Shown here piece by piece: positions 4,942 through 35,550 of a DNA stretch of 36,283 nt. The stretch's first letter is position 1. Each line of letters begins with the position of its first letter. The stretch lies in contig JAIRWH010000086.1 of NCBI GenBank assembly GCA_031253545.1, forward strand, positions 1 through 36,283, written 5' to 3'. Origin of the DNA: Oscillospiraceae bacterium. GTDB lineage: Bacteria > Bacillota > Clostridia > Oscillospirales > UBA929. The notes under the pieces are model-generated. The model made no database searches, was not told the DNA's origin, and saw nothing but the letters and a program-made list of their open reading frames with translations. The position numbers and the translations under genes are program-made.

Positions 4942-7241
4942 TGCGCCATCCGTTCGGAAGCCGGCGACAGCAGTTTTACCTGTTTTCCTCCCTCTTCGGA
5001 GGGGGGCGCGCCTTCCGATGCGGCGGCTGTTTGGCGCAGGGGGAGTATCCGCTCGCGCAACGCGCTGTAACGCTTCGGTTGCGCGGTGTTGGCCGTCATG
5101 CGGGCAAATACCGTTTCGTCGCCCACCACAATGAGCCAACGCCGCGCGCGCGTCATCGCCGTGTACAGCACCCTGCGCGTAAGTAACGGCGGCGGGCCGT
5201 TCATAATCGCCAGAATAACGGCGGTGTATTCGCTTCCCTGCGCTTTGTGTACCGTGATGGCATAAGCGGACTCCAATTCGCCGAGGATGTCGAAAGGGTA
5301 TTCCACAAGGTGGTCGTCGTAGCGGACGGTGAGCGTCTCGTAGCGCGTATCCACGCTTTCTATAACCCCCGTCTCGCCGTTGTACACACCCACGCCGCCG
5401 TCGCCGGACTGTATCCACACTAAGTTGTAGTTATTCCTGGTTTGCATAACGCGGTCGCCCACGCGATATGTGGTGTCTCCATACTGTTTTTCCGCCTTTT
5501 CCGCAGAGGGCGGGTTGAGGGCTTCCTGCAGGGCCTTGTTGAGCGCGACCGTGCCGAAAGGACCCTTGCGGGTGGGTGTGATAATCTGTATCTGTGACGG
5601 CTCCAAACCCAAGCGCCGGGGCAAGCGCTCGGCGCAAAGCTCCGTTATGGCGCGCAACGCCTCTTCGGGAGCGGTGCGCCGCAGGAAGAAAAAATCGGAA
5701 TCATCCTTGTTTCTCAGCGGCGGCACCACGCCCATATTCACGCTGTGGGCGCTTGTGACTATGGCGCTCTCGCCCGCCTGCCTGAATATCTCCCGCAAAT
5801 GTACAGAACGCACCGAATCGGATGATATTATGTCCGCGAGCACTTGCCCCGGCCCCACCGACGGCAATTGGTCGGGGTCGCCCACGAGCACAAGGCGCGC
5901 CCCCGGCGCGAGCGCGCGAAGCAAGCGCTCAAACAAGAGGACATCCACCATGGAAAACTCATCCACAATCACCATATCCGCAGGCAACCTGTTCTTTTCG
6001 TTGCGCAAGAAACGAAACGCCCCGCTTTCCGGATCCGGCATAAACTCCAACAGGCGGTGGAGCGTGGTGGCGCTTTCCCCGGTAAGCTCCGACATACGCT
6101 TTGCGGCTCTGCCCGTGGGCGCGGCGAGTGAAACGCGCAGGTTCTGCCGCTTCATCAGGCGCAGTATGCCGCTGACCGCCGTGGTTTTCCCCGTGCCCGG
6201 GCCGCCGGTGAGCAGGAAGAGGGGGCAGAGTACGGCAAGCTCGATAGCCTCCCTTTGGGCGGGGGCGTACGATAAACCGATTTCCGCCTCTATTTGGGCA
6301 ATGGCCTTCGCTATCTCCGGCCCGGGCGCGGGCGCGGCTTTGCTTCTCTGCGCGATAAACTCCGCCACGCCGGTTTCGGCTTGGTATAGTTCAGGCAGAT
6401 AGCATATATCGGCACCGGAGCCGGGCGATTTGCCGACGGCGATTTGCCGCTTTTCGCATAAAATGTCCAATGCCCCGGAAAGCGCGCCGTCGTCACGGCA
6501 ATCTATCAGCGATTCGGTGGATTCAAGCAGTTTTGCGCGCGGCAGGTAACTGTGGCCGATTTCGGTGTTATAGTGCAGCTGGTGCAGCAAAGCGGCTTGG
6601 CAGCGCAGGGGGCTGTTGCGCGCCATGCCCTCGCGCAGCGCCATGGCATCCACGAGATGAAACTCCGCGCCATAGTCCGGGTGCGCGAGTATATACGGGT
6701 TTTCGCGCACCTTCGCCCTTGCGTCCGAGCCGTAATTGCGCAGAAGCAACGCCGCGCAGCGGGTGTCTAAGCCGTGGGAAGCAAGGAACTCCAAAAGCAG
6801 CTTCAACCCCATGTGGCGCAGAAAACCGCTGCTGATTCTTTTGGCTCCGGCTTCGTTTATGCCCCTGACCTTTGTCAGCTTCTCCGGCTCTTTTTCAAGC
6901 ACGCGGAGCGTGTCCGCCCCAAACTTATCCACAATGAGCTGCGCCGTGACTTTGCCCACTCCCCTGATAACGCCGGAAGCCAAGTATGCCTTAATGTCTC
7001 CGGGGGTCTCCGGGAGCGTCCGCGCAGCCTTTTCTATGAAAAACTGTTCACCGTATGTGGGGTGGTTTCCGGCGTAACCTTCCGCCGTAACGCCTTCGCC
7101 GGGGGCAATGTGCGGCAAATGCCCCACGGCAGTCACGGGCTTGCCGCCGCCGGGTACGGCTATACGCACAACGGCATAACCCGTGACCTCGTTCTTAAAC
7201 ACCACGGCCAGCACCTTGCCGCAGAGAATAGTCTCCTTCAC
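4938..7241 (-). CDS. recD2: RecD2-type ATP-dependent DNA helicase
   Basis: A 767-residue superfamily 1B helicase of the RecD2/YrrC type, the form found in bacteria without RecBC and acting in DNA repair and replication-fork maintenance. The N-terminal OB-like part (GKVLAVVFKNEVTGYAVVRI) is followed by a helix-hairpin-helix region (KVRGINEAGAKRI). Walker A is GGPGTGKTT (346-354), Walker B DEFSMVD (about 427-433), and motifs V/VI are AYAITVHKAQGSEY and LYTAMTRARRWLIVVG. It starts with GTG at 7241, overlapping the preceding gene's stop as GTGA. The coding order ECF transporter, recD2, comF is fully overlapping, so the three genes are almost certainly co-expressed. Confidence 0.95.
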   Translation of the reverse strand: MKETILCGKVLAVVFKNEVTGYAVVRIAVPGGGKPVTAVGHLPHIAPGEGVTAEGYAGNHPTYGEQFFIEKAARTLPETPGDIKAYLASGVIRGVGKVTAQLIVDKFGADTLRVLEKEPEKLTKVRGINEAGAKRISSGFLRHMGLKLLLEFLASHGLDTRCAALLLRNYGSDARAKVRENPYILAHPDYGAEFHLVDAMALREGMARNSPLRCQAALLHQLHYNTEIGHSYLPRAKLLESTESLIDCRDDGALSGALDILCEKRQIAVGKSPGSGADICYLPELYQAETGVAEFIAQRSKAAPAPGPEIAKAIAQIEAEIGLSYAPAQREAIELAVLCPLFLLTGGPGTGKTTAVSGILRLMKRQNLRVSLAAPTGRAAKRMSELTGESATTLHRLLEFMPDPESGAFRFLRNEKNRLPADMVIVDEFSMVDVLLFERLLRALAPGARLVLVGDPDQLPSVGPGQVLADIISSDSVRSVHLREIFRQAGESAIVTSAHSVNMGVVPPLRNKDDSDFFFLRRTAPEEALRAITELCAERLPRRLGLEPSQIQIITPTRKGPFGTVALNKALQEALNPPSAEKAEKQYGDTTYRVGDRVMQTRNNYNLVWIQSGDGGVGVYNGETGVIESVDTRYETLTVRYDDHLVEYPFDILGELESAYAITVHKAQGSEYTAVILAIMNGPPPLLTRRVLYTAMTRARRWLIVVGDETVFARMTANTAQPKRYSALRERILPLRQTAAASEGAPPSEEGGKQVKLLSPASERMAQ

Positions 7242-9306: not shown

Positions 9307-11379
9307 TCAGCGCCCGCCGAGCAGTTTTTCCTGCAACGCTTTCGGCAGTTCGATATAGCGCGAAGGTTCCATGGAGTACTGGCCCCTGCCTTGGGTCTTG
9401 GAGCGCAGCGCCGTGGCGTAGCCGAACATTTCCGAGAGTGGCACCTCCGCCGTAATCTCGTTGATGCCCTGACGCTTGTCTATGCCGTCTATGTGCGCCC
9501 GGCGGGAGTTTATGTCGCCGATAACATCGCCGAGGTAGTCTTCCGGGGTAAAGACGGAAACCTTCATAATCGGCTCAAGCAACACGGGGTCGGCCTTTTT
9601 GCAACCTTCCTTGAAAGCCATAGACGCGGCTATTCTGAACGCGATTTCCGACGAATCAACTTCGTGAAAAGAGCCGTCACGCAGTGTGACCTTGATGTCC
9701 ACCGCCGGATAGCCGGAGAGCACACCCGAAAGCATAGCGTCCGCGATGCCCTTCTCCACGGCCGGTATGTACTCTTTCGGTACGCTCCCGCCCACGGTTT
9801 TGTCTGTGAACTCGAAACCTTTGCCCGATTCGTTGGGCTCCACGGTGATGACCACATGGGCGTATTGGCCGTGGCCGCCGGTCTGGCGGACATGTTTATA
9901 TTCGGACTGGGCAGACTTCCTCACCGTTTCCTTGAAAGCCACCTGGGGCTTGCCCACGTTTGCCTCCACCTTAAAATCGCGCAACAGGCGGTCCACAATA
10001 ATCTCCAAATGCAGCTCGCCCATGCCCGCGATAATGGTCTGGCCCGTGTCGCCGTCGGTATATGCCTTGAAGGTGGGGTCTTCCTCGGACAGTTTTTGCA
10101 ACGCGATACCCATTTTTTCCTGCCCCGCCTTTGTGCGCGGCTCAATAGCCACCCGGATAACCGGTTCGGGGAAATCTATGGGTTCGAGAATCAAGGGGTG
10201 CTTTTCGTCACAAAGCGTGTCGCCCGTAGCCGTGCTGCGCAGACCTACCACGGCGGCGATATCTCCGGCATAGACCTTGTCCACATCCTCGCGGTGGTTG
10301 GCGTGCATGAGCAACAACCGCCCAAACCGCTCGCGTTGCTGCTTGGCGGTGTTCATGGCCACGCTGCCGGCCGTCAAGGTGCCGGAATACACCCTGAAAA
10401 AACTCAGCCGCCCCACATGCGGGTCGGTCATTATCTTAAACGCCAAGGCCGAAAACGGCGCGTCGTCCGAGGCTTCCCTTTCGCGGGTAGTTTCGGGGTT
10501 CTCCGGGTCCGTGCCCGTGACCGGCGGTATGTCGAGAGGAGAGGGGAGGTAGTCCACCACGGCATCGAGGAGGTTTTGCACACCCTTGTTGCGGTATGAT
10601 GTACCGCACAGCACCGGCACCAAGCCGCCGGATATGACCGCCTTCCTGATGACGGATTTGATGAGCGCCGCGGAGGGTTCCGTGTTTTCAAGCACCATTT
10701 CAGCCAATTCGTCGGAAAACATGGTGAGCGTGTCTATGAGCTTTTCGCGGCAAGAGGCCGCCTCGCCGACCAATTCCGCCGGCACGTCTTCTTCGCGTAT
10801 GTCTTTGCCCAGTTCGTCGTGGGCGCAGAAGGCGCGCATTTCCACAAGGTCCACCACGCCCCTGAACGCGAACTCCGCGCCGATGGGGATTTGTATGGGC
10901 ACGGCAAGGCAATGGAGGCGGGTACCCATCATATTTACCACATTTGAGAAATCCGCGCCCATTATATCCATTTTGTTGACATACGCAATACGCGGCACAC
11001 GGTATTTATCGGCCTGCCTCCACACCGTCTCCGATTGGGGCTCCACGCCGCCTTTGGCGCAGAAAACACACACCGCGCCGTCTAACACGCGCAGGGAACG
11101 CTCCACCTCTATGGTGAAGTCCACATGACCGGGCGTGTCTATGATGTTGATGCGGTGGTCTTTCCAGATGGCGGTGGTGGCGGCGCTGGTAATGGTAATG
11201 CCGCGGTCTTGCTCCTGCACCATCCAATCCATCGTGGCCGTGCCCTCGTGGACTTCGCCGAGCTTATAGTTGCGCCCCGTGTAAAACAGGATACGCTCCG
11301 TGGTGGTGGTCTTGCCCGCGTCTATGTGCGCCATAATGCCGATATTGCGGGTCATTTCCAGGGGGTATTGGCGGGACAT
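9307..11379 (-). CDS. fusA: Elongation factor G
   Basis: A 690-residue EF-G, the translocation GTPase. The N-terminus [20 protein letters not shown] leads into the P-loop [20 protein letters not shown] and NKMD complete the GTP-binding site. Domain IV/V blocks such as GGHGQYAHV and [21 protein letters not shown] are present. ATG 11379 is chosen by family alignment; it is 5 nt after the rpsG stop with no clear SD, so translation is probably coupled to rpsG. The in-frame extension upstream lies inside rpsG and is not credible. Confidence 0.98.
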
Positions 11380-11384
11380 GGGAA

Positions 11385-11855
11385 TTACCAGCGATAATGA
11401 GCGAACGCTTTGTTTGCGTCTGCCATACGGTGGGTGTCCTCGCGTTTCTTTACCGCGCTGCCCGTGCCGTTGTTCGCGTCCATCAGTTCGCCCGCAAGCC
11501 GCTCCGCCATGGTTTTCTCGCTCCTGTTGCGAGCGTAGCCTATGAGCCAACGCAATCCGAGAGCCAAACGGCGGTCCGGGCGCACCTCTATGGGCACCTG
11601 GTAGGTGGAGCCGCCCACGCGGCGTGCCTTTACCTCAAGCACGGGCATGATGTTCTCCAACGCGTTGGTGAATACTTCCAACGGCTCTTTGCCGGTCTTT
11701 GCCTTAACCATGTCGAACGCGCCGTATACCACCTTTTGCGCCACTCCCTTTTTTCCGTCGTACATTATGCCGTTTACGAGCTTACTGACGATTTTGGAGT
11801 TATAGACAGGGTCGGGCAGGATATCTCTTTTCGGGACAGTACCTCTTCTGGGCAC
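11385..11855 (-). CDS. rpsG: 30S ribosomal protein S7
   Basis: A 156-residue S7, the primary assembly protein of the 30S head. The N-terminus [20 protein letters not shown] and the block [18 protein letters not shown] are typical. It starts with GTG at 11855, with AAGGAGGG about 8 nt upstream. It lies between rpsL and fusA in normal str-operon order. The 95-nt spacer upstream can form two hairpins (listed separately). Confidence 0.98.
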
Positions 11856-11893
11856 ATCGCTTCCCTCCTTCAGATTATGATTTCATAGGTACT

Positions 11894-11944
11894 CGAAGTG
11901 CGCCTTCGTGCTGTGCCCGCAGAGGCTATATAAAGCCTCGCGGG
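11894..11944 (-). promoter_or_regulatory. Two stem-loops in the rpsL-rpsG spacer
   Basis: A strong stem at 11916-11944 pairs CCCGC-A-GAGGCT with AGCCTC-GCGGG around a 6-nt loop (11 bp, one bulged A), starting 6 nt after the rpsL stop. A second hairpin, CGAAG/CTTCG with a 5-nt loop, lies at 11894-11908. Neither has a U-tract, so they are not terminators. In E. coli the S12-S7 spacer is where S7 binds to repress its own operon; a similar role here is inference. Confidence 0.55.
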
Positions 11945-11950
11945 GCGGAG

Positions 11951-12379
11951 TCACTTCTTGGCGGCGGGAGCCTTCGGGCGCTTGGCACCGTATTTGGACC
12001 TGCTCTGCCTGCGGTTAGCCACGCCTTGTGTGTCCAATGTGCCGCGCACGATGTGGTAGCGCACGCCGGGAATGTCTTTAACGCGCCCGCCGCGAATGAC
12101 CACCACGCTGTGTTCTTGCAGATTGTGCCCCACGCCGGGGATGTACGAGGTGACTTCCACGCCGTTGGAAAGGCGCACACGAGCCACTTTGCGAAGCGCG
12201 GAGTTGGGCTTTTTGGGTGTGGCCGTCTTTACCACCGTGCAGACACCGCGTTTTTGGGGGTTGTTTTGGTCGAGCAACTTTTTGCTGAGGGTGTTGAGGT
12301 TCTTGCCGAGCGCCGGCGCTTTGGATTTGTGCGCGGCCTTCCTGCGTCCGTTGCGTACCAACTGATTGAATGTGGGCAT
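11951..12379 (-). CDS. rpsL: 30S ribosomal protein S12
   Basis: A 142-residue S12, part of the decoding centre. [11 protein letters not shown] at the start, [17 protein letters not shown] and the [13 protein letters not shown] block are diagnostic. The Lys residues in [11 protein letters not shown] and the KDIPGVRYH region that are altered in streptomycin-resistant mutants are wild type. AAAGGAGG lies just before the ATG at 12379. It follows the L7Ae-like gene by 39 nt. Confidence 0.98.
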
Positions 12380-26148: not shown

Positions 26149-27303
26149 TCAAATCGTGTACGAATCGTGTACGGAACAACCGACCCGATTGAGTACGGCG
26201 ATAGCCTTTTCCTCCTCTTTCGGGTAAAGGTGGGAGTACGTATTCCACGTCATCTCAACCTTTGCATGGCCAAGCCGCCGCGCAACCTCTTGAATGTTGA
26301 TACCCTCACTCGCAAGCAAAGACGCGTGGCTGTGCCGAAAGTCGTGTATGCGTATCCTCTTGACCCCCGCCACCTCCGCATATGTCCTGTTCCGCTTGGC
26401 AAGAACAACTCTCGTGACGACATCGGTACCCCCACATACCCTAAGACCGTCCACACCGCTCATAAGCTCCTTATGCCTTCGTTTCTGCTCGTTAAGGATA
26501 ACCATAAGAGGCTTTGGGATTTGCAACGTCCTCATGGATGACCTGTTCTTGGGAGGGGTTTCTTCGTTGTATATACTCATACTCCTTCTCACCGACAAAT
26601 ACTCACCGCTAATATCACCCCACTTCAACGCCAATATCTCCCCTATGCGAAGCCCCGTGTAATACGCTATGGCGAAGAACACATAATAGTTCCACTCGAC
26701 GTAAGTGTTCTTGTTGGTTTCGCAATTCTGCGCACTGCTCCTTGCTACGCCGATGAACCGCTCAAACTCCTCAGGGGTATAATAGCTCGCATCAGGCTTT
26801 ATGCTCATTACATCGCGGAAATTGCCAATACGAAAAAGGGGATTCTTAGTAATGTACTCCATCTTGACCGCACAGTTGAGAATCGCCCTCAACAATGAGT
26901 AAATCTCCTTTTTTGTCGAACAAAGCAAACCTGTCTTCTCAACCCCCAACTTCCATCCTTGGAGTACCGATGCTGTTAGCCTGTCAATCCGCACTTCGCC
27001 CAACGTATCTTTGATATAGTGCACATATTTCGACAAGCGCGATGCATATGTCGTCTTCCTCGTCTCATACTGCTTGACGGCTATGTACTCCTCGAACAAC
27101 TGCTGTACCGTTTTCCTTGTTGTCGGGTTCTCCTTCTTCTCCTTAACCTCCGTGTACAGCGCCCTCTCCAAATCACGCGCCGCTTCCAAGCCGTATGCCG
27201 TGCGCGTTACCTGCTTAGCACCCCCCGACTCATCCATAAAATTGACTCTCACCAGATACTTCCGCAAGCCGTCCCTCTTGCCCGTTGTCTTGTAAATAGG
27301 CAC
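26149..27303 (-). CDS. Tyrosine-type site-specific integrase
   Basis: A 384-residue phage/ICE-type tyrosine recombinase. It has an N-terminal arm-binding region, a SAM-like core-binding domain (about 65-165, VQQLFEEYIAVKQYETRKTT) and a catalytic domain with the Arg of YYTGLRIGEILALKWGD, HDFRHSHASLLASEG, LGHAKVEMTWNTYSHLYP (nucleophile Tyr). All R-H-R-H-Y residues are visible, so it looks active. It starts with GTG 27303 behind GGAGGG (7-nt spacing) and has a promoter at 27340-27368. It marks the left boundary of the element; its last codons contain a tandem repeat that may be part of the attachment site. Confidence 0.93.
   Translation of the reverse strand: MPIYKTTGKRDGLRKYLVRVNFMDESGGAKQVTRTAYGLEAARDLERALYTEVKEKKENPTTRKTVQQLFEEYIAVKQYETRKTTYASRLSKYVHYIKDTLGEVRIDRLTASVLQGWKLGVEKTGLLCSTKKEIYSLLRAILNCAVKMEYITKNPLFRIGNFRDVMSIKPDASYYTPEEFERFIGVARSSAQNCETNKNTYVEWNYYVFFAIAYYTGLRIGEILALKWGDISGEYLSVRRSMSIYNEETPPKNRSSMRTLQIPKPLMVILNEQKRRHKELMSGVDGLRVCGGTDVVTRVVLAKRNRTYAEVAGVKRIRIHDFRHSHASLLASEGINIQEVARRLGHAKVEMTWNTYSHLYPKEEEKAIAVLNRVGCSVHDSYTI
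26152..26173. repeat. Perfect tandem 11-bp repeat at the integrase 3' end; candidate attachment site
   Basis: AATCGTGTACG occurs twice without a gap (26152-26162 and 26163-26173) and overlaps the last codons of the integrase. This is where an attachment site would be expected. The matching copy at the far end lies outside the window. Confidence 0.5.
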
Positions 27304-28735: not shown

Positions 28736-29944
28736 CTAACGCTCTGTTCCGTAATCCGGGCCTGTCCGTATATGGGAAGGGTTTTGGCTGTATATTGTTT
28801 CCGAAAGCAGTTTAATCCTCCTGTCCAACGCGGAACACAGTGTGTCGCAACGGGCTTTGTCGAGAAACCGGGAATGCTTTATGATATTGCGCCATTCTTC
28901 GCTTACGTTTTTTAACGCGGATATGTCGAGCCAATCGAATGGTTGCGCTAATTTAATTTGTTTTTCGTGCGTGGATTCAAAAGGCTTGCATGGTGTTTTT
29001 ACGGAAGAGGGCCGTATCATCATAGTTGATTGTGAACACCACATTGATGTGCCGCTGTCGTAGATTGGGGCTATGCCGATATATTCTAAGGTTTCCGCAT
29101 TCCTTACCGCCCCGAAATTGCCCAAATGCCTGTCTTCATTGGCAATGATGTAGTCCAACACAAGCATCATGCCAATGCTTTTTTCGGCGGAAGGGATACG
29201 AAGGGTTTCACAACAATTAAGGAAATGTTTGTAAAGCGATATGTGGTTCGCTTGTTTTTGGGTTCGCGTAATTTGGTATGCGGTAACAAGCTCGGTATTT
29301 GCCGTCAAAAAATTTTCGCATACCGAATACGGATAATCCTCTGTGTCCGATATTAGCGTATATGGTACGTGGGGAACACCCAGGCGCGACATGATTAACG
29401 TCGCGAGGATTTCATTATATGGTTCCTGTTGGAACGGATTATTGCCGCCTTTAACAAGGCAATATTTGTTTTCGATAACCCTCCATCTCTTTTTCAGTTG
29501 GCCATCCGATGTATTATCGGGAGAAAAATAATTATCCTCTTCCGTTGGCTCATTTTCGGCGAACAATATATTTCCGATGTCGTAAGAGAATGAATTGGCA
29601 AAGAAATTTACTGCGCCCCATGATATGTCGGAGTTTCCGGGGCGTATCCAGTACTGGTCTGAAAACGACAGGCAAAGGCTTTTCATCGGTAATTGTTCCG
29701 TTGAATGCACCCCCAGTTTCGGCAAAGCGTCTTTTATGCTTATGCGGCTATCGGGAATCGAGCGGTTTTTAATCCAGTTGTTGAGCGCGGCGCGGTCGGT
29801 AGGTTGTACGCCGACCGGTATATGCTCCGGCGAGTGGATGGCTTTTATTTTTGTTATGGAAAAAGTATCATAGTCGATTTCTATATCGGCAACCCGTGTG
29901 TTTTGGTGCATGAGGGTATATGGTTTTATTCCCATACTGTCCAT
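28736..29944 (-). CDS. HipA-like kinase domain protein, 402 aa
   Basis: A protein whose C-terminal half is a HipA/PI3K-like kinase. Visible elements are a candidate ATP-binding Lys in YCLVKGG (about 165) with EPYNEILATLIMSRLGV after it, the catalytic loop ANEDRHLGNFG (269-278) and the metal-binding DSG of IAPIYDSGTS (about 296). The N-terminal 150 residues are not the usual HipA N-domain and I do not recognise them. Known HipA toxins phosphorylate aminoacyl-tRNA synthetases and are held in check by a HipB DNA-binding partner; no such gene is adjacent here. ATG 29944 has GGGGAGG 7 nt upstream. The promoter region carries phased repeats and an inverted repeat, suggesting tight control. Confidence 0.8.
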   Translation of the reverse strand: MDSMGIKPYTLMHQNTRVADIEIDYDTFSITKIKAIHSPEHIPVGVQPTDRAALNNWIKNRSIPDSRISIKDALPKLGVHSTEQLPMKSLCLSFSDQYWIRPGNSDISWGAVNFFANSFSYDIGNILFAENEPTEEDNYFSPDNTSDGQLKKRWRVIENKYCLVKGGNNPFQQEPYNEILATLIMSRLGVPHVPYTLISDTEDYPYSVCENFLTANTELVTAYQITRTQKQANHISLYKHFLNCCETLRIPSAEKSIGMMLVLDYIIANEDRHLGNFGAVRNAETLEYIGIAPIYDSGTSMWCSQSTMMIRPSSVKTPCKPFESTHEKQIKLAQPFDWLDISALKNVSEEWRNIIKHSRFLDKARCDTLCSALDRRIKLLSETIYSQNPSHIRTGPDYGTER

Positions 29945-30123: not shown

Positions 30124-30161
30124 TTTTGGAGAGAAACGGGGTTTCCCGTTTCTCTCCAAAA
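30124..30161. repeat. Perfect 17-bp inverted repeat with a 4-nt loop
   Basis: TTTTGGAGAGAAACGGG (30124-30140) and its exact complement (30145-30161) flank GTTT. It lies 23 bp past the helicase/methylase fragment. The arms run TTTT to AAAA in both orientations, the opposite of an intrinsic terminator. Confidence 0.7.
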
Positions 30162-30184: not shown

Positions 30185-30490
30185 TCATCTCTCATAGGCT
30201 GATTCGTCTTCTTGTTCCTCGCCATTTTCCGGCTCGTTTTCGGTTTCCGCCTCTTTTTCTTTCTTTTCCTCATTTTCATCGAGGACGGGCGCTTCGTCTT
30301 TTTTGTCCAGATTAAGTTTCGCGTTAAGTTCCGCAAGCCTTGCTTCTTTTTGGTTGAGTTCATCTTCTCGATCAAACGGAATGAGAAGTTGTTTTTCGGT
30401 GATTGCTATGTTTTTCTTGATTTCTTCAAGCATTTGTTTCTGTTCCGTTATCCCTTTCTCGAAACCGTTAAAAGCGTTATCTATACGGGT
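30185..30490 (-). pseudogene. C-terminal fragment of a large conjugative-element helicase/methylase-type protein
   Basis: An open frame running from the TnpB junction near 30490 to the stop at 30185 encodes RIDNAFNGFEKGITEQKQML, then EEIKKNIAITEKQLL, IPFDREDELNQKEARLAELN and AKLNLDKKDE, ending in a very acidic tail. This matches my memory of the extreme C-terminus of the giant SNF2-helicase/N6-methylase proteins of clostridial conjugative elements. The rest of that protein (well over 1000 residues) is missing. An internal ATG at 30433 has no clear SD. Family assignment is moderate because only the coiled-coil tail is available. Confidence 0.5.
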
Positions 30491-30875
30491 AATATTTGTG
30501 CATGAAGTCGAGGACTTGCCTGTTGCGTTTTTCCGCCAGCCCTTGCAACGTCGCCGTCCACTTACCCTGCCCCAGCCTGTCGGCTATCTCGGAGTAGTGC
30601 GCCCGCCGCTTGTTGTAGAGCAGGTTCATGGACTTCAGACCCTTGCCATTCAACGCCAGCGCCCGGAAACCGGTCACGTTGGAGGTTATGGCTGCGAAGT
30701 TGTCCATGCCCAGATCCAAGCTCATGTAGCGGCCGTTGTCGGGGATGAGGTCGGGTACTTCCGCGCGGTATATCACCTCGATGACCAGGTTGTTCCAGTG
30801 CGGGACTATGCGGGCGCCCTGCACCTTCTTGGACTTGCCGAACGGGACTTTGAACCCGCCGAACACCTTAGGCTT
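30477..30875 (-). pseudogene. TnpB (IS200/IS605 OrfB) central fragment
   Basis: About 132 residues of a TnpB RNA-guided nuclease: VQGARIVPHWNNLVIEVIYR, then the RuvC-I motif MSLDLGMDNFAAIT (catalytic Asp present), LNGKGLKSMNLLYNKRRAHY and LAEKRNRQVLDFMHK. The N-terminal domain, RuvC-II, the zinc ribbon and RuvC-III are absent, so it is inactive. It is fused in frame to the restriction-enzyme fragment before it, and its base composition is visibly more GC-rich than that fragment. It ends at a stop (30477) just past the junction with the helicase/methylase tail. No tnpA was found. Confidence 0.75.
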
Positions 30876-31464
30876 GATGTGTATTGCGTCGTTGAGAATA
30901 TTTAATGCGATGTTCATCCATTTTTCAAGCTCCACAGAGGGTTTACTCCCAATCGGCGTTTTCTTTGTGAGCGTAGAGGTCAAACCATCTATCGCTTCGT
31001 CAATCTTCTCGATAGCTTGATAATTTTGTTTCAGAGCCAAGCCTTGTAAATAATTGCGGTTTTCGCGAAGTTCGGTTATATGAGCCTTTAACTTATCTAT
31101 GTTGTTTGGTACAGGTATAGCCTCAAACGGAAGGTTTAACACGTGGGCTAACTCCGTATTCTCGGCGATAATTTTACTCGCAATTTCACGAAGTTTTAAT
31201 GGCGTTTCAAATGGTAAGGTATAAGCATTGTAATCACTAATGTAACGCGTGTAATCCGCGGCAGTTTCAAACACAATGGCCGAAGCATTGTCATGCTCTA
31301 AGAGAGCGCCAGTCTCAATCATACGGCGAGGCTCAAGGTCAATATAATACCCGCCGCCGCGAATGTAGATATACCGAGTGAGGCGCAGATACCTCACCAT
31401 GTTGTCGGTATACTCGTGGATGTTTTTCTCGGCGTTGCGGAAATTGCTGAGATAGTTTGCAATG
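30876..31464 (-). pseudogene. AlwI-family type II restriction endonuclease, C-terminal fragment
   Basis: About 195 residues resembling the C-terminal half of AlwI-family restriction endonucleases: NYLSNFRNAEKNIHEYTDNM, then VRYLRLTRYIYIRGGGYYID, LEPRRMIETGALLEHDNASA and LPFETPLKLREIASKI. The N-terminal half is replaced by a pilin-like gene fragment, and the extreme C-terminus by the TnpB fragment in the same frame. No cognate methylase is visible. The ATG at 31400 has GAGTATACC upstream and no good SD. A dead remnant is the most likely state. Confidence 0.7.
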
Positions 31465-31725
31465 AATGGCGAGCGCGAACATTATCCCGCCGACAAACGC
31501 CACAAGCAACCCTATCCGCATAATCCACGTGACAAAAAACCCCACGACGTTGTTGAATACATTCTCCGCATCAACGCTTGGACTCACAGCCCCTGCCAAC
31601 GGCGCAAACAACGTCCCCGCGATAAGGGCAACCATAATGATTGCCGTAACCCTCATCGCCCACCTCGCCTTACCGACTCCTTCCTGCGCTACGACCGCTT
31701 CCTGCTTTCTCTTGTTTGCCTTCAT
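31465..31725 (-). pseudogene. VirB2-like conjugal pilin, N-terminal fragment
   Basis: About 87 residues: a basic start, a signal-like hydrophobic segment (VTAIIMVALIAGTLFAPLAGA) and a second one (FFVTWIMRIGLLVAFVGGIMFALAI). This looks like the small VirB2/TrbC-type pilin of ICE type IV secretion systems, which normally continue with a short loop and a further hydrophobic segment. After residue 87 the frame passes into the restriction-enzyme fragment out of frame and stops at 31339, so the C-terminus is lost. ATG 31725 has AGGAGAG about 9 nt upstream. Confidence 0.5.
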
Positions 31726-31758
31726 TTGAATCGCTCTCCTTCATAAAATATTTGGAAT

Positions 31759-31776
31759 GTTATCACGAATGATAAC
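31759..31776. promoter_or_regulatory. Palindrome GTTATCA-N4-TGATAAC, copy 1
   Basis: GTTATCACGAATGATAAC lies about 34 bp upstream of the pilin-like start. The same arms recur at 35531-35548. Position suggests an operator. Confidence 0.6.
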
Positions 31777-31800
31777 TTATTCCCGTTTTGGCTACGTCCG

Positions 31801-31839: not shown

Positions 31840-31856
31840 GCATCGCTCAATCTCGA

Positions 31857-32777
31857 CTATCTCCTTTTCAACAACCCCCGGCTTCCTTGCCCGCCATCGT
31901 CACCATTCCCTTGCCTATTTTGTCTTTTCAGGGCCGACAACAGTATCTCCTCATACCTCATGTTCACCGCCCTCTTGAGATACTCTTTCCTTGTCTCAGC
32001 AATTTCTTCCGTTTTACCAATAAGCTCGCCTATCGCATTCATATCAACGCGCGGAACAACTCTCTTTATCGCCGCTCCAAGCTCACAACTCGGATTCCTG
32101 AATATCTCATGGTAAAACATCTTCTTTCCGCCATACTTATAACACGAATACACATTATACTCACAATTCCTGAACTCCGTCATGTCCTGCATTACATTCC
32201 TCATTTTATCGTCACTCATCAAAGCCGCCAACGAAGACCCGCAATCATATATAGGCGCAAACCTCAGCTTCCCGCCATTCTCAACCAACCCCCAATTATC
32301 CAAATGCCTGTCCTTATTTCCAATCAACGCATCAATAACATACATATCCCAAAACCCGCACATAACCTCGTCTTTGTCTGTTATCAAAGGATGCGCTTCA
32401 ACTACTTCCTTAACATATTCAATCGTCAATTCCTCCCTTTTTCCTTCTTTTGTCTGTTTTGCAATTCTCGAAAACTCGTACAGCACCCCTTCATCTTCCG
32501 TAAAATCCTTACATCCGACAACTATTTTCCGAATCCCACCAACACTCGTCATATATCCCAATACTGTTTCCTGAGCCTTGATGCCACAAGCATTAGCTAT
32601 ATGACAACCAATATATTCCGAATACTGATTGTTCATATAGCTCAGCTGATTGTTTTTTTCCCTCACGGGGTCCGGATATTTTACCATATACATAGCGCCG
32701 CCGTACAATACCGCCGTCTTTGCTTCCGAACCTCCGTATCCGCTCAACTTCTGGACACCTTTATCAAAATCAATCAT
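31857..32777 (-). CDS. HipA/CtkA-like kinase, 306 aa
   Basis: A compact HipA-like kinase without a separate N-domain. A candidate ATP-binding Lys is in YMVKYPDP (33), followed by NQYSEYIGCHIANACGI; the catalytic loop is GNKDRHLDNWG (153-163) and the metal-binding DCG is in APIYDCGSS (about 178). The basic, Gly-rich tail (RQNRQGNGDDGGQGSRGLLK) is unusual. Its ATG at 32777 overlaps the end of the 80-aa gene by 8 nt, indicating coupled translation. Known relatives include toxins that phosphorylate host proteins and standalone kinases in mobile elements; the target cannot be read from sequence. It is a different subfamily from the HipA-like protein at 28736-29944. Confidence 0.82.
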   Translation of the reverse strand: MIDFDKGVQKLSGYGGSEAKTAVLYGGAMYMVKYPDPVREKNNQLSYMNNQYSEYIGCHIANACGIKAQETVLGYMTSVGGIRKIVVGCKDFTEDEGVLYEFSRIAKQTKEGKREELTIEYVKEVVEAHPLITDKDEVMCGFWDMYVIDALIGNKDRHLDNWGLVENGGKLRFAPIYDCGSSLAALMSDDKMRNVMQDMTEFRNCEYNVYSCYKYGGKKMFYHEIFRNPSCELGAAIKRVVPRVDMNAIGELIGKTEEIAETRKEYLKRAVNMRYEEILLSALKRQNRQGNGDDGGQGSRGLLKRR

Positions 32778-33099: not shown

Positions 33100-33453
33100 T
33101 CATCTCCTCCTCGCCGCCGACCGCGCCTGCGCGTCGCCACGCACCACATCCACACCGGCGCCGCAGTCAAGCCCCGTCAGCGCCGTATTGTGGCTCACGT
33201 CAAGCGTGGTGAGCCGGTTGCCGCCGCAGCTAAGCCTCCTCAGCGCGGTGGCACCGGTTACGTCAAGCGCGGTGAGTTGGTTGCCGTAGCACCAAAGCCA
33301 CGCCAACGCCGTATTCCTGCTCACGTCGAACTCGGCGAGACGGTTATTGTAACAACAAAGGTGTGTTAGCGCCGCATTATGGCTCACGTCAAGCGCAATG
33401 ATTTGGTTGTTGTTGCAGTAAAGTATCGCCAACACCGCATTACACTCCGTCAT
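33100..33453 (-). pseudogene. Leucine-rich-repeat protein fragment
   Basis: Just over four 21-residue repeats of the type LxxLxCYNNQLTALDVSxNTA are visible (63 bp per unit, about 33160-33430), a pattern found in surface and internalin-like proteins of gut bacteria. There is no signal peptide, N-cap or anchoring domain. The frame begins inside the end of the ParA fragment and finishes in an Arg/Ala-rich tail (VRGDAQARSAARRR). The possible ATG at 33453 has only a weak SD-like GGGG directly before it. It is most likely a piece of a larger gene brought in by recombination. Confidence 0.6.
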
Positions 33454-33613
33454 CCCCCGTTCCGTTGCGGAAGAACTCGAACGTATTCCGCTGGTCGTCA
33501 CAATCACAGACCAGTACCTGTTTTCCGAGCTTGCTCAGTCGGTGTGCCACATTGATAACCGCCGTGGACTTCCCGACCCCGCCTTTGTTGTTGAAAAACG
33601 CTATTCTCATCAT
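33440..33613 (-). pseudogene. ParA/Soj-like ATPase, N-terminal fragment
   Basis: A 57-codon frame with an intact deviant Walker A (FFNNKGGVGKSTAVINVAHR) and the beginning of the next strand (KQVLVCDCDDQRNTFEFF). A full ParA is about 250 residues; the remainder is replaced by the leucine-rich-repeat fragment in another frame. ATG 33613 has AAGGGAG 7 nt upstream, so the fragment is probably still translated. The original would have been the element's partition protein. Confidence 0.75.
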
Positions 33614-33763: not shown

Positions 33764-34144
33764 TTAGCCGAAAATATCCTCGTACTGTGCCTTGCTCATT
33801 ATCGCCACGAACGGCGACTCTTCAATTGCCTTAATTGCTTGCCTTGCCTCCTCCTCGGTTGTCTTGGTGACGTTATACAGCGCCACCATCTTTCCGCACC
33901 GCGACACGAACTCAATACTCCTCACATTTTCCGCCCACACTCGTCTTTCCTGTCCTGCTTCGTCCCCATATAAATCGTCCAGTCTGCACTCAAAGAACTG
34001 CGCCAGCTTACGCGCCAACGAGAGGTGGACGTCCGCGCCTCGTTCAATGGCGAAAATTGTCCGCTTCGTTGTTTTAACGGCGGCGGCAAGCGCATCCTGC
34101 GTTATACCCCTTTTAATCCGAAACTCTTTAACCCTATTAACCAC
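33764..34144 (-). CDS. XRE-family transcriptional regulator
   Basis: A 126-residue regulator. The N-terminal helix-turn-helix covers about 3-58 (VNRVKEFRIKRGITQDALAA, then TTKRTIFAIERGADV) and resembles Cro/C1 repressors. The C-terminal part (about 60-126) is of unknown function. A longer frame starts at GTG 34201, but a consensus promoter overlaps those codons (34190-34218), so that start would precede the transcript. GTG 34144 has GGAG 6 nt upstream and gives a typical XRE start. It may control genes of the element, for example through the repeated palindrome. Confidence 0.75.
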   Translation of the reverse strand: MVNRVKEFRIKRGITQDALAAAVKTTKRTIFAIERGADVHLSLARKLAQFFECRLDDLYGDEAGQERRVWAENVRSIEFVSRCGKMVALYNVTKTTEEEARQAIKAIEESPFVAIMSKAQYEDIFG

Positions 34145-34189
34145 GTACCTCTCCAACCTTTCCGTACAAGTGTAGTTTACTTCCTCTTT

Positions 34190-34218
34190 ATTGTATTCCA
34201 CTTCCTTGTCCCTGTCAA
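34190..34218 (-). promoter_or_regulatory. Promoter of the XRE regulator
   Basis: On the minus strand a perfect TTGACA (34213-34218), 17 bp, then TACAAT (34190-34195). The start point would be near 34183, about 40 nt before GTG 34144. Confidence 0.72.
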
Positions 34219-35498: not shown

Positions 35499-35528
35499 TC
35501 GCGACGCGCCCTTGTTCGCTCCTCTCAA

Positions 35529-35550
35529 AAGTTATCACAAATGATAACTT
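35529..35550. promoter_or_regulatory. Palindrome GTTATCA-N4-TGATAAC, copy 2
   Basis: AAGTTATCA and TGATAACTT form perfect 9-bp arms around CAAA, immediately after the 126-aa gene. The core arms are identical to those at 31759-31776. Confidence 0.6.

What the first reader, a model, noticed from the sequence alone, without database searches (positions are those of the whole stretch)
30185..31725. Four unrelated gene fragments joined on one strand without spacers
Reading the minus strand: pilin N-terminus, AlwI-like C-half, TnpB centre, helicase/methylase tail. The AlwI-TnpB join near 30875 is in frame and base composition changes there. In conjugative elements the pilin and helicase lie on the same strand many kb apart, so this looks like one or more deletions that removed the transfer genes. 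An assembly chimera is also possible.
Basis: partly seen in the sequence, partly recalled or inferred. Interest (0 to 1): 0.6.

Follow-up and report, generated by a model that had tools for sequence, protein, structure and literature searches.

The report
Scar of a decaying conjugative element
Pieces of four unrelated genes (a transfer pilus protein, a restriction enzyme, a transposon nuclease and a transfer helicase) are stuck end to end inside a broken mobile element; this is most likely an ordinary deletion scar left as a self-transferring element decays, and it is unlikely to be a new gene.

Summary
On the minus strand, a TrbC/VirB2-type pilin (residues 1-86), the middle third of an AlwI-type restriction enzyme, the middle third of a TnpB nuclease and the last ~100 residues of a ~3000-aa conjugation helicase abut with essentially no filler. 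None of the pieces has a stop or frameshift. AlwI and TnpB are joined in frame, but each lacks both ends. The label "AlwI C-half" is wrong: it is the middle. No genome searched carries the chimera as one protein. In an intact conjugative element the pilin slot and the helicase tail lie on one strand about 18 kb apart. VirB4 and the helicase body were not found in this genome, and only a headless coupling-protein fragment remains on another contig. A second scar of the same kind (ParA N-terminus joined to a leucine-rich-repeat fragment) lies 1.4 kb away. Best reading: a decayed integrative conjugative element that lost its transfer region through several microhomology-sized deletions. A one-event rearrangement or an assembly chimera cannot be excluded without reads. 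Low interest.

The parts
31468..31725 (-). TrbC/VirB2-type conjugative pilin, residues 1-86 only; preceded by a Shine-Dalgarno-like AAGGAG; its frame runs on out of register to 31339
   Evidence: 41.7% tblastn hit, E 0.7, to pOBV01 OBV_p-00340; pairwise E 7e-11; that protein matches PF04956 and sits between T4CP and VirB6
30875..31466 (-). middle third of an AlwI-type restriction endonuclease (about residues 240-440 of ~600)
   Evidence: PF09491 E 5e-11; 46-48% to full-length AlwI proteins in G149, G148, G096
30497..30876 (-). middle third of a TnpB/IS605 OrfB nuclease (about residues 140-272 of ~410), GC3 85%, in frame with the AlwI piece
   Evidence: NF040570 1e-9, PF01385 3e-6; 39-44% to full-length TnpB; GC3
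30185..30498 (-). C-terminal ~103 residues of the very large conjugation-element helicase/methylase protein, with its stop codon
   Evidence: matches the C-terminal region of very large ORFs in 49 of 295 genomes including own, up to 45% identity over most of the piece
30124..30161 (-). perfect 17-bp-arm hairpin just after the helicase stop, possible terminator
   Evidence: inverted repeat I3
33445..33613 (-). second scar: first ~57 residues of a ParA-family ATPase, truncated
   Evidence: phrog_164 1.7e-16, AAA_31 1e-14; plasmid ParA alignments end at residue 49-57
33159..33440 (-). second scar: leucine-rich-repeat fragment (four 63-bp units) joined directly to ParA
   Evidence: phrog_7816 9e-22, LRR_4 7e-11; 69-80% DNA identity to stretches on several other contigs of this genome; D1 repeat
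26149..27303 (-). tyrosine integrase of the element
   Evidence: PF00589 2e-19

Best explanation
The stretch is a deletion scar in a decayed integrative and conjugative element (ICE) that begins at the integrase at 26.1 kb and runs off the contig end. Shown: a conjugative-type pilin start and an ICE-type helicase end are joined to inner pieces of an AlwI gene and a TnpB gene, all on one strand, at sites with no filler; VirB4 and the helicase body were not found in the genome. Inferred: an AlwI restriction gene and a TnpB insertion were carried as cargo in the same direction as the transfer genes, and several deletions with breakpoints at microhomologies of a few bases removed the ~18 kb of transfer genes and both ends of each cargo gene. 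The in-frame AlwI-TnpB join is a one-in-three accident; it lacks an obvious ribosome-binding site and both proteins lack their outer parts, so no product is expected to work.
For: Each part is truncated at a join relative to full-length relatives. An intact element has the pilin slot and helicase tail ~18 kb apart on one strand. VirB4 and the helicase body are not detected in the 97%-complete genome, and the only coupling-protein match is a headless 333-codon frame on contig C35, so this genome carries other conjugation remnants. A second fragment-to-fragment join (ParA-LRR) lies 1.4 kb away. No relative carries the chimera. A decayed ICE with a large T4SS deletion plus two further small deletions has been described (PMC7563491).
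Against: Three separate deletions would have had to occur without any stop or frameshift accumulating in ~1.5 kb. No intact relative was found with AlwI and TnpB between pilin and helicase. The VirB4 and helicase searches had no positive control inside the call. The contig ends inside the element, so the rest of it is unseen.
Confidence: 0.65

Rival explanations
1. One complex rearrangement: a single break-repair event captured short foreign or cargo fragments (filler DNA or template switching) between the pilin and helicase ends.
For: Blunt joins with tiny overlaps and no decay in any piece suggest one recent event; a similar join, ParA-LRR, is nearby and the LRR family is abundant in the host genome.
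Against: No Ku gene found in the genome (the control rang in Bacillus subtilis), so no classical bacterial end joining; all pieces share one strand, which capture does not predict; no donor copy of AlwI, TnpB, pilin or helicase in the genome.
Confidence: 0.15
2. Assembly or library chimera: the joins do not exist in the cell.
For: The window is a whole contig of a 96-contig draft assembly; no second genome of the species is available; the AlwI-TnpB junction DNA was not found in viral contigs.
Against: Three joins within 1 kb at few-base overlaps are not what short-read graph assemblers usually produce, since they need much longer shared words (general knowledge); no part occurs twice in the genome.
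Confidence: 0.15
3. A functional AlwI-TnpB fusion protein (334-codon open frame) selected as a new gene.
For: The join is in frame and the frame is open for 334 codons.
Against: Both halves are inner fragments lacking both ends; no copy of the fusion in 295 order genomes; ATG at 31400 has no Shine-Dalgarno.
Confidence: 0.03

Closest known systems
Decayed ICEs (dICE/CIME), e.g. dICE_Ssal39-01_fda of Streptococcus salivarius (PMC7563491)
   Same: integrase kept, T4SS block lost, extra small deletions in neighbouring transfer genes
   Different: here the end points fall inside four unrelated genes and two of them (AlwI, TnpB) are not transfer genes; no close intact parent is known
Clostridial conjugative elements: plasmid pOBV01 (pilin relative) and the ICE-like element in G229 (helicase relative)
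   Same: related pilin (pOBV01) and related giant helicase (G229), same strand and compatible order
   Different: the transfer genes between the two are missing here

Membership tests
decayed ICE (dICE/CIME) | integrase together with a remnant conjugation module | tested here: met
   tyrosine integrase 26149-27303; pilin and helicase remnants
decayed ICE (dICE/CIME) | loss of signature genes (VirB4, coupling protein, relaxase) | tested here: inconclusive
   VirB4 and helicase body not found in the genome, without positive control; coupling protein only as a fragment on C35; relaxase not searched; contig ends within the element
decayed ICE (dICE/CIME) | attL and attR recombination sites | not tested
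   right end lies beyond the contig
decayed ICE (dICE/CIME) | clear descent from a closely related intact ICE | tested here: inconclusive
   relatives of the pieces are only ~35-48% identical
AlwI restriction endonuclease | full-length protein of ~600 aa | tested here: not met
   only about residues 240-440 present
TnpB RNA-guided nuclease | complete ~400-aa protein with all RuvC parts | tested here: not met
   only residues ~140-272 of ~410
TrbC/VirB2 pilin | complete small membrane protein of the family, encoded between T4CP and VirB6 | tested here: not met
   homology to the pOBV01 pilin ends at residue 86 of the piece (residue 109 of 143 in the relative); window piece hits no pilin model and is not next to T4CP or VirB6

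The most novel reading that the evidence does not exclude
A process in this lineage joins sense-strand pieces of unrelated genes end to end (for example template switching on messenger RNAs followed by insertion of the copy), producing chimeric gene arrays; the ParA-LRR join would be a second product.
Probability: 0.03. Interest if true: 0.8.

Novelty: new member of a known kind. Interest (0 to 1): 0.2.

Why it matters
If read as above it is a clear snapshot of how conjugative elements erode, and a warning that automatic annotation could report a false AlwI-TnpB fusion protein. It would matter more only if the joins proved to come from a single fragment-joining process.

Tried and rejected
Conserved fusion family: rejected, none of the other order genomes searched carries both AlwI and TnpB parts in one frame. 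Recombination between repeats inside the genome: rejected for the four-piece scar, no second copy of any piece. Ku-dependent end joining: no Ku. Same junction elsewhere: AlwI-TnpB junction DNA absent from viral contigs; the region has no DNA match in plasmids or phages and only 30-48-bp matches in order-mates. Viral contigs encode no relative of the pilin, AlwI or TnpB pieces. pOBV01's 1484-aa gene as helicase relative: no similarity. A literature search for short-patch double illegitimate recombination gave nothing.

Full report
What was checked. The window is the whole of contig C30 (36,283 bp) of a 1.80-Mb, 96-contig draft genome that is about 97% complete. Its last 10 kb, from a tyrosine integrase at 26149-27303 to the contig end, looks like a mobile element with its recognisable genes on the minus strand: RusA, two HipA-like kinases, an XRE regulator, Fic and others.

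The four pieces. Reading the minus strand, 31725-31468 encodes the first 86 residues of a pilin. The only plasmid hit is the 143-aa OBV_p-00340 of the conjugative plasmid pOBV01 (E 0.7; 40% over 62 aa in the pairwise comparison). That protein is a TrbC/VIRB2 pilin by Pfam (25.9 bits, slightly under the 27.9 cut-off) encoded between a coupling protein and a VirB6-like protein, with a PrgI-VirB4 fusion after that. Similarity ends at residue 86, at the join. From there to about 30875 the DNA encodes the middle third (about residues 240-440 of 600) of an AlwI restriction enzyme. From 30876 to 30497 it encodes the middle third (about residues 140-272 of 410) of a TnpB nuclease. From 30498 to the stop at 30185 it encodes the C-terminal tail of a huge helicase found in conjugative elements of the order (49 of 295 genomes including own; many hits lie in frames of 2000-3300 aa).

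The joins. Neighbouring homologies abut or overlap by a few bases. At AlwI-TnpB the residues read I-K-P-K-V-F: AlwI relatives have I-K-P-N and TnpB relatives have F-P-K-V/T/A-F, so the proline codon and possibly the next two bases are shared. At TnpB-helicase about two bases (AA) are shared. At pilin-AlwI the breakpoint is somewhere within about 13 bases. These overlap sizes are inferred from protein relatives of about 45% identity and are not measured on parental DNA. All pieces are open in their own frame; GC3 is 67, 49, 85 and 41%, which suggests different sources.

Intact elements. In G229 the order is coupling protein (upstream), VirB6, VirB4, a gene in the CHAP slot, topoisomerase, helicase, all on one strand, and the helicase tail lies about 18 kb from the pilin slot just before VirB6. 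In G037 and G227 the helicase lies upstream of the relaxase instead, so order varies. In the window's own genome, VirB4 and the helicase body from G229 gave no match (no positive control within those calls), and the coupling-protein family gives one match, a 333-codon frame on contig C35 whose homology begins mid-protein and which sits among chromosomal-looking genes. This genome therefore holds other conjugation remnants.

A second scar. At 33613-33445 the first ~57 residues of ParA are joined directly to a leucine-rich-repeat fragment (33440-33159) that is 69-80% identical in DNA to repeats on several other contigs of the genome.

Interpretation. Serial deletion in a decaying ICE explains the common strand, the natural start at one end, the natural stop and hairpin at the other, and the missing transfer genes. 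A published decayed ICE has a large T4SS deletion plus two small additional deletions (PMC7563491), so several deletions in one remnant have precedent. The weak points are that three joins accumulated with no point-mutation decay, and that no relative shows AlwI and TnpB between pilin and helicase. A single complex event or an assembly chimera remain possible; the genome has no detectable Ku, which argues against classical bacterial end joining. The AlwI-TnpB open frame is best read as an accident: a one-in-three chance, no obvious ribosome-binding site before ATG 31400, and both partners lacking their outer parts.

Noticed in passing
31756-31778 and 35528-35550: Near-identical 23-bp palindrome (GTTATCA-N4-TGATAAC) upstream of the pilin start and upstream of the Fic region; looks like an operator of a regulator in the element, possibly the XRE protein at 33764-34201.
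   Followed up: no
31849-31902 and L058 (C71) 5090-5146: 57-bp match (77%) covering the 3' end and stop of a HipA-like kinase here and of an unrelated frame with a P-loop (GGGKTT) on contig C71, suggesting a shared downstream gene start and further chimeric gene ends in this genome.
   Followed up: partly
28736-29944 and 31857-32777: Two HipA-like kinases flank the scar, with a short 49-bp stretch of 73% identity between them.
   Followed up: no
L075 (C35) 11067-12065: Headless type IV coupling protein (C-terminal half) next to an XRE-like gene, among chromosomal-looking genes: a small conjugation remnant elsewhere in the genome.
   Followed up: partly
33159-33410: Four 63-bp LRR units whose relatives occur on several other contigs (C82, C44, C58, C24, C29, C6, C46 and others), some at contig ends: a repetitive LRR family that may break the assembly.
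   Followed up: partly
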